Shown piece by piece: positions 1 through 51,190 of a stretch of 64,000 nucleotides of DNA. The notes beneath the pieces are model-generated. The model ran no database searches. It was given only the letters and a program-made list of their open reading frames with translations, and was not told where the DNA came from. Source of the stretch: Myxococcales bacterium (GTDB taxonomy: Bacteria > Myxococcota_A > Polyangia > Polyangiales > Polyangiaceae); contig CANJCO010000019.1 in the NCBI GenBank assembly GCA_947473045.1, positions 1-64,000 on the forward strand, given 5' to 3'. Numbering within the stretch: the first letter of the stretch is position 1; every line of letters begins with the position of its first letter. A program made the position numbers and the translations under genes.

Positions 1-146
1 AGCAGGGTGTTGAAAAACACCCTGATAGTAATTGGCGAAGCCAATTGCGTGGGGTGGGGACCCCGAAAAACCGCGTTTTTCGGGGCGGGGAGGTGCATAC
101 CTCCCCGAGATGAAAGGCTAGCAGGCCGTTCTTCAACGGCCTGTTA
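1..146 (+). repeat. 147-bp multi-hairpin element, copy A
   Basis: This is a non-coding element nearly identical to the copy at 38228..38374 and present in inverted, more diverged form at 1087..1236. It contains five consecutive inverted repeats: a terminal hairpin (1-26), an AATTGGC/GCCAATT hairpin, a CCCCGAAAAA/TTTTTCGGGG hairpin, a GGGGAGGT/ACCTCCCC hairpin and a second terminal hairpin (119-146). The two terminal hairpins are inverted copies of each other, so they act as palindromic terminal inverted repeats, as in a MITE. The first base of the element lies just outside the window. Mobility is inferred from the repeats only. Confidence 0.85.
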
Positions 147-1086: not shown

Positions 1087-1236
1087 TAGCAGGCCGTTGA
1101 AGCAGCGGCCTGCTCGCCTTTCATCTCGGGGAGGTATGCACCTCCCCGCCCCGAAAGACGCGGTTTTTCGCCGGTCCCCACCCCACGCAATTGGCTTGGC
1201 CAATTCCTGTCAGGGTGTTTTTCGACCGCCCTGTTC
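1087..1236 (-). repeat. 147-bp multi-hairpin element, copy C (inverted, diverged)
   Basis: This is an inverted copy of the element at 1..146. The inner hairpins are kept, including the GGGGAGGT/ACCTCCCC stem and an AATTGGC/GCCAATT stem whose loop is CAA instead of GAA. The outer hairpin near 1211-1236 is decayed. A further 8-bp inverted repeat (CCCTGTTC at 1229-1236 with GAACAGGG at 1254-1261) joins this end to the transposase relic. Bases 957..1086 between the lipoprotein gene and this element hold nothing recognisable. Confidence 0.8.
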
Positions 1237-1265: not shown

Positions 1266-1385
1266 CGATTGTTCTACACGGAAAGCTTCAAAGCGAAGAT
1301 GGTGCAGCGATTGTCTGCGCCGAACGCGATCAGCGCGCTCAGGCTCTCGAAGGAGGTCGGGGTCTCGCAAGCGCAGCTCTCGTTG
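1266..1385 (+). pseudogene. transposase N-terminal relic (HTH, IS3-OrfA-like)
   Basis: About 40 codons encode a helix-turn-helix start typical of transposase OrfA-type proteins, with FYTESFKAKMVQRL followed by LSKEVGVSQAQLS. After that the frame runs into sequence antisense to the downstream MarC-family gene and the similarity stops, so the catalytic part is missing. It directly abuts the outer hairpin of element copy C, which suggests the transposase belonged to the same mobile family or that the element was used as a target. The family assignment is by eye and the exact limits are approximate. Confidence 0.6.
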
Positions 1386-1457
1386 AGCTCCCCTGGGCGC
1401 AGCCGCGTCGACGTTCAATCGGCTCGCGCCGCGCGGGGCCAACCTCTCCGCGCGCGC

Positions 1458-25280: not shown

Positions 25281-27989
25281 GTGCAGAAAAAAGCCTTCGC
25301 GTCGCTCCTTGTGCTCACGTTGGCCTGCGGCGCAGACGACCCTGCGATCGGGCCCGGCGCGGCCGCGGATGGCGGCGTCGATTCACCGTCGGGGGAAGCG
25401 GGGCCCGACGCCGCGCTGGCGGCTGAGCCCATTTACGTGATCGACCTGTCCGCGCAGTATCTCAACTGCTTCGGAGGCTGCAAAGCGGCGGTGTCCGCGC
25501 AGCCGGTCGCCAAGACGCTCGACAACCTCGACACCCTCGTGCTTGCGATGAGCGTGCAGGGAATCGTCAACCGCAAGGGGCCGCGCTTGTATGTCGTGGC
25601 GACCCCCGCCGACGCGTTCTGGCTCCAGCGCGCCACGGAGGCCGGCAAGGCCTGGGGCTGGGCGGCGGCGCACCCGCAGAAGAAGCTCACGACCGCGAGT
25701 GAGCTCGCGTCGACCTTCGGGGCCGAGCTCAAGGGGAGCGTGCGCTGGACGGCCGATGTGCCTGCGACGCTCGATGTCGCGACCACTGCGGCCGGCGCGC
25801 TCGGGCTCGCGATCGTTCGCGAAAGCAGCCCCGTCGCCGCGGCCGTGCTCCCCACGTGGCCGGTGCAAAGTGATCTCGTCGGAAAGTTCAAGACCAAGCG
25901 CGACGCCTACGCCTTTGCCCGCGCGACCTATTTGGGCAAAACCAGGCCCGGGCTGATCGGCTATCAGCTCGATGGTTGGCCGTGGACGCGCCTGCTTCAG
26001 GGGGCCGACGGGAGCGCAGTGGCTGCGCCCAACATCCTCGCGCGCGACTACCTGATCGGCGAGCAGGCCTACGTCTTCGACTTGTCGCCGTGGGCTGACG
26101 TCACGCCGCCCGACGACGGCTCGCAGCCACTCGGCAGCGATCTGGCCGAGCTCGTCGCCACCCTCGACGCAGCGCACGCCGCCGTAGCCGGCAAGGAGCT
26201 CGGCACCATGTGGGGCTTTTACCCTGTCGACAAATACGCAGTCGGCGTTCACTCCGAGCCCGTCTCGGGCGAGTGGACGACGGCGCGGATCATTTCGGAG
26301 CACGGCGTTCGCCTCACTGGAAACGGCGGTCAAGCGTACGGGCTCGAGGCCGGCAACGCGTCGTTTCACAAGTGGGGAACGTTCCCCAACCACGCCCCGC
26401 GCCACGCCTCGCCCACACCCTCGCAGCTGGCCGATCTGGGATATATCAATCAGCGCCTGCAAAACCCCGGCTTCGACTGGAACAGCCTCGCAGGCTGGAC
26501 GATCGACGCGCAAAACCGCGCGATTTATGCGGGCTCCGCTGCGCCCGGAGGCCACGAGTACTTTCTCGAGTTCAACGGCGCCCTCAATCAGAGCCTCTAC
26601 CAGACTGTGCCTGTCGCGCCGCAGGCCGGCGAGACCTGGCGCCTGCGCGCCCAGTACCGGTTGCCGCAGCCGGCGAGCCGGGCCAAGTTGGTGCTGTGGG
26701 GGCTGGGCGGCGGCGACGAAGCCGCGCAAGTCGCGCTCACCAACGCCGACGGGCAGTGGCACACGGCCGAGGTGACGCTCTCTCCGGCCACGAGCGCCCA
26801 CACGGCCATGCGCGCTCAAGTCTACCTCGACGCCGCCGGCCCGAGCGTCGACCTGGACGAGCTTCGCCTCGCCCGCGTCGCGCCGTGGAGCAACGACGTC
26901 GCCCCGCTGACGTTCGCCACGTTCTTCGAGGCCGACTACGACATGGGGACTCCCATTTATGCAACGCCGGTCGCAGTGTACCCGAAAGTGTGGACCGATC
27001 AGGCGCGCGGCAGCTTCCCGGTGGCGTGGGATTTCGCCCCCGATACGATCGACTACTACCCGGGCGTGATGCACTATTACTTCGCGACTGCGACTGCCAC
27101 TGACTGGTTTACGGTCTCCGATTCCGGGGGCGGATATGTCAATCCCAGCTATCTGTCGGCGGCCGATCGCGCGCTGTTCATCAAGAGCTCGCGCCGGGCG
27201 ATGAGCCGCACCGGTGAGTCGTTTATGAGCTTCTTTCTAAACGGCTACGCGGCCTCGCCGGCGCCCGACGTCGAGGCTGCCTGGAACGCCCTCGGACCCG
27301 ACGGCGTGATCGCCAATCAACTGTCCTCGCCGGATCACCGAATGGTGGGCAACGTGGGATGGTGGGCAGTCGACAGCAACGGGTGGTCGTACGGCGGCAT
27401 CTCGGAGGGCGACGCCGCCGCGAATCTCGACAAAGCCTATGTCGCCCGCTACGGAAACGCGGCGACGGGCGTTCGGTTCCTCGCCGGTCGAAACGTGTAC
27501 ACGGGGCCCGATCTGGCGAGCCGCATGGTCGCAGCCAGCCGCGCGTTTCATCCGGAGCGCGATCTCACTGCCGTCGATCCTTACACGTTCGGCTACCTCT
27601 ACCGGCAGTGGAGCGGCGGGGCGAACACTTCGCGCGCCTCGTGGCTCGATGACACCCTGCCGCGCGCGGCGGCGCCAGGCGCGTCGCTCGCGGGCTCCGT
27701 ACGGGTGCGCAACGACGGGTGGGAGACGTGGAGCGCCTCGGCGTGCAAGCTCGGCGTCGTCGTCAGCGGCAGCGCCGACGCGACCCCCTCATCTCCGGCG
27801 GGCGCAACCGTGGCCACGTTCGCGCTGCCCGCGGACGCCTCTCCAGGGGCCGCGGTCGACGTCGCAGTCACGCTCGCTGTGCCGAAAAACGCCGGAAAAT
27901 ACGCCATTTCCTACGACATGAGCTGCGGCGGCTGGTTCGAGTCGGCGCTCAACCTCGAGTACCACGACGCGCTCGTGGTCTCCCCGTGA
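25281..27989 (+). CDS. GxGYxYP-family putative glycoside hydrolase, lipoprotein
   Basis: A 902-residue lipoprotein starting at GTG 25281, with LTLAC as lipobox. After an Asp/Gly-rich linker, the stretch LVLAMSVQGIVNRKGPRLYV fits the GxGYxYP N-terminal domain. The name-giving motif appears as SGGGYVNPSYL (around residue 620). Between them, about residues 395-545, is an inserted beta-sandwich with NPGFDW and LNQSLYQTVPV, resembling a carbohydrate-binding module. The C-terminus looks like an Ig-type domain (RVRNDGWETWS). It probably acts on a surface or external polysaccharide. Confidence 0.8.
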   Translation: MQKKAFASLLVLTLACGADDPAIGPGAAADGGVDSPSGEAGPDAALAAEPIYVIDLSAQYLNCFGGCKAAVSAQPVAKTLDNLDTLVLAMSVQGIVNRKGPRLYVVATPADAFWLQRATEAGKAWGWAAAHPQKKLTTASELASTFGAELKGSVRWTADVPATLDVATTAAGALGLAIVRESSPVAAAVLPTWPVQSDLVGKFKTKRDAYAFARATYLGKTRPGLIGYQLDGWPWTRLLQGADGSAVAAPNILARDYLIGEQAYVFDLSPWADVTPPDDGSQPLGSDLAELVATLDAAHAAVAGKELGTMWGFYPVDKYAVGVHSEPVSGEWTTARIISEHGVRLTGNGGQAYGLEAGNASFHKWGTFPNHAPRHASPTPSQLADLGYINQRLQNPGFDWNSLAGWTIDAQNRAIYAGSAAPGGHEYFLEFNGALNQSLYQTVPVAPQAGETWRLRAQYRLPQPASRAKLVLWGLGGGDEAAQVALTNADGQWHTAEVTLSPATSAHTAMRAQVYLDAAGPSVDLDELRLARVAPWSNDVAPLTFATFFEADYDMGTPIYATPVAVYPKVWTDQARGSFPVAWDFAPDTIDYYPGVMHYYFATATATDWFTVSDSGGGYVNPSYLSAADRALFIKSSRRAMSRTGESFMSFFLNGYAASPAPDVEAAWNALGPDGVIANQLSSPDHRMVGNVGWWAVDSNGWSYGGISEGDAAANLDKAYVARYGNAATGVRFLAGRNVYTGPDLASRMVAASRAFHPERDLTAVDPYTFGYLYRQWSGGANTSRASWLDDTLPRAAAPGASLAGSVRVRNDGWETWSASACKLGVVVSGSADATPSSPAGATVATFALPADASPGAAVDVAVTLAVPKNAGKYAISYDMSCGGWFESALNLEYHDALVVSP

Positions 27990-28000
27990 GCCGTCCCGGG

Positions 28001-28108
28001 TGTTCAGGCGTGTGAACATGCGTGTTCAGGCGTGTGAACATGCGTGTTCAGGCGTGTGAACATGCGTGTTCAGGCGTGTGAACATGCGTGTTCAGGCGTG
28101 TGAACATG
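28001..28108. repeat. 22-bp palindromic tandem array, 5 units
   Basis: Five head-to-tail copies of a 22-base unit, perfect except for the last two bases of the final copy. Each unit contains the dyad TGTTCA-N6-TGAACA, and the joints form GAAC-N6-GTTC dyads, so the array can be read as overlapping palindromes. It lies between the ends of two convergent genes (27989 and 28153). It has no spacers, so it is not CRISPR. It may be a protein-binding array, a structured RNA 3' end, or a mini-satellite. Confidence 0.9.
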
Positions 28109-28152
28109 TCGCCGGGTGGCTGCGATCGGCGGACCGGCTCGCAGCCGCGACG

Positions 28153-36955: not shown

Positions 36956-38230
36956 TTGAATCCATCGCCCCCACGCAGGAGCAAGGCCGGTGGCGCCAAA
37001 AAGCGCCCGACGCGCTACGCAGGCAACGCGGCCAGCGCAGCGCTCGCGACTGCGCTGCGTCTCCACAAGCGCGGCGATCACGAGTCCGCCCGCGCGGCCT
37101 ACGACGCTGCGATCGCGGGCGCGCCGCGCGATGTCGATGCGTGGATGAACAAGGGCGCCCTCGCGGTGCTCGCAGGTCGCGCGGCAGAGGCCATCGCCGC
37201 GTTCGCCTCCGCCACCGCGTTCGCGCCCGATAACGCGCGCGCGGCCCGTGACGCGGGCATCGGCCTCGCCGCCATCGGTGAGCTCGGCGGCGGTCGCGGA
37301 GCCCTCGAACGTGCGATCGTGCTTGATTCCAGCCTGATCGGCGCTCGGCTCGCCCTCTGCCGCGTGGTCGCCGAGCTCGGGGATGAAGCCGCTGCGATCC
37401 ATCACGCCCGCTGCGCCGTGCGCGATGCGCCCCGCGACGCCTCCGCACACGTCGAGCTGCACAGGGCCCTGTTCGATGATCGCGATCTGGGCCCGTGCCT
37501 CGAAGCTGCCGCGCGCGCAGTCGCGCTCGACCCTGGCCACGCGCTGGCGAGGCTGTGCCTTTCGGGAGCGCTGGCGCTGTCGGGCGACCTGCACGCAGCG
37601 GCCGCGGCGCTCGGCGACGACGGCCTCGTCGCGACCGGTCTCCGCGATGCGATCGCCTACGCGACCGCGGCGCGGCCCGTGGCGTCGCGGTGCTTTTCGT
37701 CGACGCGCCAAACCTTGTATTTTGCAATGAATCACGCGCCGCCTTCCGGCCTCGTGCTCGAGCTCGGCGTGCGACACGGCGTCACGCTTCGCGTGCTCGC
37801 CGGCGCCTCGGGCGACCCGTCGACTGTGCACGGCTTCGACTCGTTCGCGGGCCTCCCCGAGCCGTGGCAGGGGCGGCCTGCCGGAGCGTTTTCAACCGGC
37901 GGCGAGCTCCCCGAGATGCCCGATGGCGTCGCGCTCCACGCCGGGTGGTTCGACGTCACGCTCCCGCGCTTCCTCGCCCGCACCTCCCAGCCGCTGCGTC
38001 TGGTGCACATCGACAGCGATCTGTACTCGAGCGCGCGGACGGCGCTGCGGGCGCTGGGGCCGAGGGTGCGGCCCGGCTGCGTGCTCGTCTTCGATGAGTA
38101 CCTCGGCAACGCGAGCTGGCGCAGCGACGAGCACCGCGCGTTCCGCGAAGCCGCTGCCGACTTCGGCTGGCGCTTCGAAGAGCTGTCGCTCAGCTGGCTG
38201 ACCGGGCAGGGAGTCGTTCGGATTCTTTAG
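36956..38230 (+). CDS. TPR protein fused to TylF-like methyltransferase
   Basis: The 424-residue protein starts at TTG 36956. No other start occurs before the first repeats. About residues 25-230 are TPR-like helical repeats (GDHESARAAYDAAI, GRAAEAIAAFASATAFAPD). About residues 245-424 form a class I methyltransferase of the TylF/macrocin O-methyltransferase group: LVLELGVRHG, HGFDSFAGLPE, HAGWFDVTLPRFL, VHIDSDLYSSA, VFDEYLG. The product probably modifies a sugar or polysaccharide. Its stop codon TAG is the first three bases of the multi-hairpin element at 38228. Confidence 0.82.
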   Translation: MNPSPPRRSKAGGAKKRPTRYAGNAASAALATALRLHKRGDHESARAAYDAAIAGAPRDVDAWMNKGALAVLAGRAAEAIAAFASATAFAPDNARAARDAGIGLAAIGELGGGRGALERAIVLDSSLIGARLALCRVVAELGDEAAAIHHARCAVRDAPRDASAHVELHRALFDDRDLGPCLEAAARAVALDPGHALARLCLSGALALSGDLHAAAAALGDDGLVATGLRDAIAYATAARPVASRCFSSTRQTLYFAMNHAPPSGLVLELGVRHGVTLRVLAGASGDPSTVHGFDSFAGLPEPWQGRPAGAFSTGGELPEMPDGVALHAGWFDVTLPRFLARTSQPLRLVHIDSDLYSSARTALRALGPRVRPGCVLVFDEYLGNASWRSDEHRAFREAAADFGWRFEELSLSWLTGQGVVRIL

Positions 38231-38374
38231 CAGGGTGTTGAAAAACACCCTGCTAGGAATTGGCGAAGTCAATTGCGTGGGGTGGGGACCCCGAAAAACC
38301 GCGTTTTTCGGGGCGGGGAGGTGCATACCTCCCCGAGATGAAAGGATAGCAGGCCGTTCTTCAACGGCCTGCTA
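38228..38374 (+). repeat. 147-bp multi-hairpin element, copy B (complete)
   Basis: The best-preserved copy. The two 28-base terminal hairpins (38228-38255 and 38347-38374) are inverted copies of each other: both start TAGCAGG, share GTTGAA in the centre and end CCTGCTA. The GT/AC pair in the left stem is replaced by CC/GG in the right, which keeps both stems paired. It differs from copy A at about five positions, and inside the second hairpin a C-to-T change leaves a G-T pair. 38375..38443 holds nothing else recognisable. Confidence 0.88.
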
Positions 38375-38443
38375 GTTAGCAAAACACACTGCACGCTTTC
38401 GCGTGCCGCCGCGGCGCGCCCACCGCCGCGAAAACGCCGGGTG

Positions 38444-50982: not shown

Positions 50983-51190
50983 GGTTCCCTCTGCCTGGCT
51001 CGTGATTGCGCAGACTTATGGATCCCTTACGTTTGTGAACCAGGGGCGCGACCCATCGCTCGGTGTGCACGCCGGGCAGCACTGCAAAGCGCTGATAACT
51101 CGGAAGCCTTAAGAGCGATCCAGCGCCCCACCTAGCCACACTGGCTAGGGGTTCATCAAGTCTGCACACGGCCGCGGCGGTACGGAACAC
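50983..51190 (+). ncRNA. ssrS: 6S RNA
   Basis: A folded RNA of about 208 bases. The ends pair GTTCC (50984-50988) with GGAAC (51184-51188), and further in GCAGACTT (51010-51017) pairs with AAGTCTGC (51158-51165), leaving a central single-stranded region. The 3' half contains GAAGCCTTAA (51103-51112), a hallmark of proteobacterial 6S RNA, and a hairpin at 51132-51148. 6S RNA mimics an open promoter and binds RNA polymerase sigma70 holoenzyme. The 423-base gap 50878..51300 between genes is otherwise empty apart from its promoter and terminator. Confidence 0.83.

What the first reader, a model, noticed from the sequence alone, without database searches (positions are those of the whole stretch)
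38228..38374. 147-bp element with five hairpins and palindromic terminal inverted repeats, three copies
Copies lie at 1..146, 1087..1236 (inverted) and 38228..38374. Seen: the two 28-base terminal hairpins are inverted copies of one another. Between the two ends, a GT/AC stem pair in one is CC/GG in the other, so base-pairing is kept by paired changes. Inner hairpins are conserved even in the diverged copy (loop GAA to CAA). Known: MITEs and REP-like elements carry short terminal inverted repeats or hairpins. A compact unit with five ordered hairpins is unusual. Inference: a non-autonomous mobile element whose ends are recognised as hairpins, as in IS200/IS605 or REP/RAYT systems, or a structured RNA spread through the genome.
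Basis: partly seen in the sequence, partly recalled or inferred. Interest (0 to 1): 0.75.

Follow-up and report, generated by a model that had tools for sequence, protein, structure and literature searches.

The report
Hairpin MITE sitting on stop codons
This is a short passenger transposon, present in at least 150 copies in this myxobacterial genome, that often sits exactly on the stop codons of genes and carries a folded centre conserved across a whole bacterial class although its ends differ from genus to genus.

Summary
The 147-bp unit folds into exactly five hairpins (DNA fold z = -11). It has at least 150 copies in this genome, not three. Its ~70-nt core recurs in 37 of 318 genomes searched in the class, with strong covariation (146 double-change cells against 34 in shuffles).

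In the home genome the element is best read as a MITE of an IS5-family transposon. A single intact IS there (IS5-family DDE transposase) has the same terminal repeat (CAGGGTGTTGAAA) and is flanked by TTAG/TTAG. MITE copies sit at CTAG/TTAG/CTAA, the YTAR target known for IS5, with a target-duplication signal.

Two things are unusual. The core is conserved while the ends differ between genera. Copies also abut stop codons exactly: 45/53 in one relative and 34/64 here, against about 20% of non-coding target sites. In four comparisons with relatives the upstream gene ends at or near its ortholog's end, so insertion spares the gene.

The IS partner outside the home genome, the function of the core and the cause of the stop-codon excess are not established.

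The parts
38231..38371 (+). element proper, CAGG...CCTG (copy of the finding)
38227..38230 (+). TTAG, left target site; its TAG (38228-38230) is the stop codon of the gene 36956-38230
38372..38379 (+). CTAG followed by TTAG on the right; the second TTAG can be read as the duplicate of the left TTAG if the element end includes CTAG (inference)
38228..38255 (+). terminal hairpin 1 (left inverted repeat)
38258..38274 (+). hairpin 2
38275..38344 (+). class-wide conserved core (model R1)
38289..38313 (+). hairpin 3, covarying
38314..38335 (+). hairpin 4, covarying
38347..38374 (+). terminal hairpin 5 (right inverted repeat)
3..143 (+). second copy; the contig begins inside its left flank
1090..1233 (-). 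diverged third copy
36956..38230 (+). upstream gene (TPR + methyltransferase) whose stop codon TAG abuts the element

Best explanation
The element is a non-autonomous, MITE-like transposon. In the home genome it is mobilised in trans by an IS5-family DDE transposase that recognises the CAGGSTGTTGAA terminal repeats. It integrates at YTAR sites (mostly CTAG) and duplicates the 4 bp. CTAG, TTAG and CTAA contain TAG or TAA, so landing on a gene's own stop codon leaves the stop in place, and when two convergent genes meet at one YTAR both stops can be kept. Such insertions do not harm the gene, which helps explain how over a hundred copies persist. Shown: copy number, TIR match to a co-resident IS, target motif, duplication signal, exact stop-codon abutment, upstream genes that end at or near where their orthologs end in relatives, and a class-wide covarying core. 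Inferred: that this particular IS moves it; that the core acts at the DNA level (hairpins in single-stranded or cruciform intermediates); and that relatives with other ends use other transposases.
For: At least 150 copies, 40 near-identical. Intact IS5-family transposase gene in the own genome, 273 bits against cut-off 140, flanked by TTAG|CAGGGTGTTGAAATTC ... TTTCTCAACGTCCTG|TTAG; sister IS in G284 with CTAG|CAGGCTGTTGAA ... TTCAACAGCCTG|CTAG. MITE flanks: CTAG, TTAG and CTAA make up 48 of the tabulated left and 57 of the right 4-mers; left and right 4-mers match more than shuffled (17/64 against 10.8, P 0.02; mean identity above all 2000 shuffles). IS5 duplicates Py-T-A-Pu, mostly CTAG (PMC5493358, PMC10359306). 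Stop codons abutted exactly: 34/64 here, 45/53 in G022. Upstream genes end at or near their orthologs' ends. Covariation.
Against: Only about a quarter of the copies have identical 4-mers on both sides, and some near-identical copies (L004) have none. IS5-family partners with matching ends were not found in relatives that carry other ends. The conserved core is not predicted by a plain MITE model. The stop-codon share exceeds what motif plus avoidance of coding sequence gives. No same-species empty site was available.
Confidence: 0.72

Rival explanations
1. REP/RAYT or IS200/IS605-like single-strand transposition: the end hairpins are recognised by a Y1 (HUH) transposase.
For: Palindromic ends, high copy number, places near gene 3' ends, and solo end hairpins in G007.
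Against: No Y1_Tnp in the own genome, while the same search rings in 5 of 14 control genomes; terminal inverted repeats, a YTAR target and a duplication signal fit a DDE IS.
Confidence: 0.05
2. Stem-loop-replacing transposition as described for IS1272: a DDE transposase swaps a target hairpin, such as a terminator after a stop codon, for the element, without duplicating a target.
For: IS1272 replaces inverted repeats with no target duplication (PMC5678879); the own transposase also matches the IS1182 model, below its cut-off; copies in G272 and G267 show no duplication; many copies lie beside another end hairpin.
Against: Both IS copies with these ends are flanked by direct YTAR repeats and the MITE flanks carry a duplication signal; no hairpin was evident at the orthologous sites read.
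Confidence: 0.13
3. The conserved core is a functional RNA or 3'-end signal (terminator, processing site or insulator) that is spread by transposon ends and kept at gene ends because it is useful there.
For: Core conserved and covarying across the class while ends differ; placed at gene 3' ends, most clearly between convergent genes in G022; copies without a right end hairpin that still end at a stop codon.
Against: No Rfam match; G.U barely exceeds A.C in the stems (34 to 21); no U-tract after the hairpins; near-identical copies beside unrelated genes and in both orientations in the own genome.
Confidence: 0.12

Closest known systems
IS5-family insertion sequences and MITEs derived from them
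   Same: DDE transposase of the IS5 type in the same genome, matching TIR (CAGGGTGTTGAAA), YTAR target with CTAG commonest, 4-bp duplication signal, no coding capacity, many copies
   Different: Each end is itself a palindrome; the middle is conserved with covariation across a class; copies often abut stop codons
IS1272 / IS1182 family with stem-loop-replacing transposition (PMC5678879)
   Same: Related DDE transposase domain; link to palindromes; some copies without target duplication
   Different: Direct YTAR repeats flank both IS copies with these ends; the IS1182 model is below its cut-off
REP/BIME with RAYT; IS200/IS605-derived PATEs
   Same: Palindromic units in high copy, often near gene 3' ends
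   Different: No Y1 transposase in the genome; terminal inverted repeats and a duplicated YTAR target
Pneumococcal BOX/RUP and Neisseria Correia elements (PMC10969869)
   Same: Modular, structured, MITE-like repeats in more than a hundred copies
   Different: Unrelated ends; by the review Correia lies mostly upstream of genes; no comparable class-wide conserved core is recalled for them

Membership tests
IS5-family MITE (home genome) | TIRs shared with a co-resident IS5-family IS | tested here: met
   CAGGGTGTTGAAA identical at the left ends of MITE and IS; right end CAGGCCGTTGAAGAA against CAGGACGTTGAGAAA
IS5-family MITE (home genome) | Transposase of the IS5 family | tested here: met
   NF033581 273.5 bits against cut-off 140; DUF772 and DDE_Tnp_1
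IS5-family MITE (home genome) | YTAR target, 4-bp duplication | tested here: met
   Motif clear; duplication clear for two IS copies, statistical for the MITE copies (17/64 identical)
IS5-family MITE (home genome) | Moved in trans by that transposase | not testable with these tools
   Needs a transposition assay
IS5-family MITE (relatives with other ends) | IS5-family partner with the same ends | tested here: not met
   None tied to the ends of G022, G313, G272, G298, G056 in searches with two transposase models; other families not searched
REP/RAYT, IS200/IS605 | Y1 transposase in the genome | tested here: not met
   PF01797 absent in the own genome
IS1182/IS1272 stem-loop replacement | No target duplication; a hairpin replaced | tested here: inconclusive
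   Direct repeats at both IS copies; no duplication in g5 copies; no same-species empty sites
Known structured RNA family | Rfam match | tested here: not met
   None at gathering; only chance-level hits at E up to 5
Structured RNA | Covariation with a strand preference for RNA pairs (G.U over A.C) | tested here: inconclusive
   Covariation strong; G.U 34 against A.C 21

The most novel reading that the evidence does not exclude
The folded core is an independently conserved module that has been carried under several unrelated pairs of transposon ends and is selectively placed or kept at translation stop codons, so that it works as a portable, gene-sparing 3'-end cassette (a terminator, insulator or RNA-processing site) rather than as mere transposon filler.
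Probability: 0.2. Interest if true: 0.85.

Novelty: new variant of a known kind. Interest (0 to 1): 0.62.

Why it matters
MITEs are normally defined by conserved ends and a disposable middle. Here the reverse holds across a bacterial class: the middle is conserved with compensatory changes and the ends differ from genus to genus. The exact, gene-sparing position at stop codons shows a simple way for a transposon to reach high copy number in gene-dense genomes, and gives a natural set of more than a hundred near-identical insertions with which to test effects on termination and mRNA 3' ends.

Tried and rejected
Rfam at gathering and permissive thresholds: no family. Y1 transposase in the own genome: none. 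PF13751 and IS5_4 in relatives: no partner tied to the other end types. A pattern search for G022 end hairpins used the wrong loop length and is uninformative. Plasmids (blastn) and viral contigs (exact pattern): no match. An automatic TIR scan missed the imperfect TIR of the own IS; it was found by reading the flanks. An RNA strand bias was tested and is not clear. That stop-codon abutment is only target motif plus avoidance of coding sequence was tested: expected 18-21%, seen 53% (own genome) and 85% (G022), though selection against insertions in promoter regions could account for part. Literature searches found no report of this family in the held library.

Full report
The element is real. 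The unit at 38231-38371 (CAGG...CCTG), with the flanking TAG/CTA, folds as single-stranded DNA into exactly the five hairpins described, at -54.8 kcal/mol against -21.2 +/- 3.0 for shuffles (z = -11). The other window copies are at 3-143 (+) and 1090-1233 (-).

The core is conserved and covaries. A model of the ~70-nt core (38275-38344) finds matches in 37 of 318 genomes of the class. In 74 distinct aligned cores, 94.6% of stem cells are paired against 83.2% in shuffles; 18 of 19 pairs have changes on both sides; 146 double-change cells against 33.8; covariation score 0.332 against 0.129, and at most 0.098 when the partners are slid. That alignment was fitted to the model, which leans the counts somewhat; the first set of 16, aligned by MAFFT without a structure, gave the same kind of result. 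G.U (34) and A.C (21) cells differ little, so the data do not say whether DNA hairpins or an RNA are selected.

The ends are not conserved between genera. For eight genomes, pairwise core alignments score z = 4 to 14 over shuffles, while left ends score z = -1.8 to 4.1 and right ends mostly below 4 (one pair 6.4). Examples: own genome CAGGGTGTTGAAAAAC; G022 AGGTCTGTC / AGAGCTGTC; G313 AGCACCGAT; G298 AGAGGTGACC / AGAGCTGCCC; G272 ATCAGCGAGC / ATGACCGAGC. The general plan (end hairpin, small hairpin 2, GTGGGG, hairpins 3 and 4, GATGA-like sequence, end hairpin) is kept in most.

Partner in the home genome. The genome holds one intact DDE transposase gene of this type (G000:C83) with DUF772 and DDE_Tnp_1 domains, called IS5 family by NCBIfam (273 bits, cut-off 140; the IS1182 model is below its cut-off). 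Its flanks read TTAG|CAGGGTGTTGAAATTC ... TTTCTCAACGTCCTG|TTAG. A sister IS in G284 reads CTAG|CAGGCTGTTGAA ... TTCAACAGCCTG|CTAG. The MITE ends carry the same repeat and sit mostly in CTAG, TTAG or CTAA; left and right flanking 4-mers agree more often than shuffled (17/64 identical against 10.8, P = 0.02; mean identity above all 2000 shuffles). For IS5 the published target is Py-T-A-Pu, most often CTAG (PMC5493358; PMC10359306). No Y1 transposase (PF01797) is found. That this IS moves this MITE is an inference from ends and target.

Position on stop codons. Genes were called with a codon-usage score of my own, so single calls are approximate. In G022, a well assembled relative (Polyangiaceae isolate ACE_MYX3, judged by equal contig lengths), 45 of 53 copies start exactly with the TGA that is the in-frame stop of the upstream gene, and 29 of 37 right flanks called convergent have that gene's stop within 25 nt. 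Non-coding CTGA sites are stop codons in only 21% (26 of 122), binomial P about 1e-22. In the own genome 34 of 64 copies with both flanks abut a stop on at least one side, against 18% (13 of 72) of non-coding YTAR sites. The element of the finding does so: TAG at 38228-38230 ends the gene 36956-38230, whose methyltransferase domain is complete. In genus g5 the abutting stops are TAA, TAG and TGA. Compared with relatives at four loci, the upstream gene is not truncated: at one the G246 ortholog has the same last residues and CGC-TGA; at a second G246 and G250 end with the same LRPKKGAH; at two more the end agrees within a few residues.

Interpretation. The simplest account is a transposon whose target motif looks like a stop codon, so that insertion on a stop with target duplication costs the gene nothing, and such copies survive. 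This predicts the motif, the neutrality and part of the excess. Selection against insertions upstream of genes would add to it. The G022 excess may need more. Stem-loop replacement, known for IS1272 (PMC5678879), is a rival for the variants without visible duplications.

Open points. Why the core is the conserved part is not explained. Partners for the other end types were not found, but not all transposase families were searched. Several copies in G268, G005, G035, G002 and G004 lack the right hairpin and end at or just after the GATGA-like sequence with the convergent gene's stop exactly there, which is unexplained. No match was found in plasmids or viral contigs, and no report of the family in the held literature; subscription journals are mostly not held.

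Noticed in passing
L041 (G035:C267), reverse strand, core at 445-515: The core lies in frame inside an otherwise open purF-like reading frame (between FARPDS and VYEVRKSLG), adding residues without a stop, like the in-frame palindromic elements of Rickettsia.
   Followed up: partly
L036, L043, L050 (G007): Solo end hairpins (AGCAGGGTGTTGAAAAACACCCTGCT), identical to the left end of the home element but without a core, lie scattered like REPs.
   Followed up: no
L342, L343, L044, L088, L034, L350, L355: Copies without a right end hairpin end at or just after the GATGA-like sequence, directly at the stop codon (TAA, TAG or TGA) of the convergent gene.
   Followed up: partly
window 27978-28131: Tandem array of a 22-bp unit GTGTTCAGGCGTGTGAACATGC, itself palindromic (GTTCA...TGAAC), just downstream of a long + strand gene.
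   Followed up: no
window 1268-1410: Fragment resembling an IS3-type HTH_Tnp_1 transposase start, below the Pfam cut-off, directly beside the diverged copy.
   Followed up: partly
window 38280-38320: The core keeps GGGGTGGGG...GGGGCGGGG around hairpin 3 in most genomes, a spacing that could also form a G-quadruplex.
   Followed up: no
window 50985-51187: 6S RNA gene (Rfam RF00013, 62 bits).
   Followed up: no
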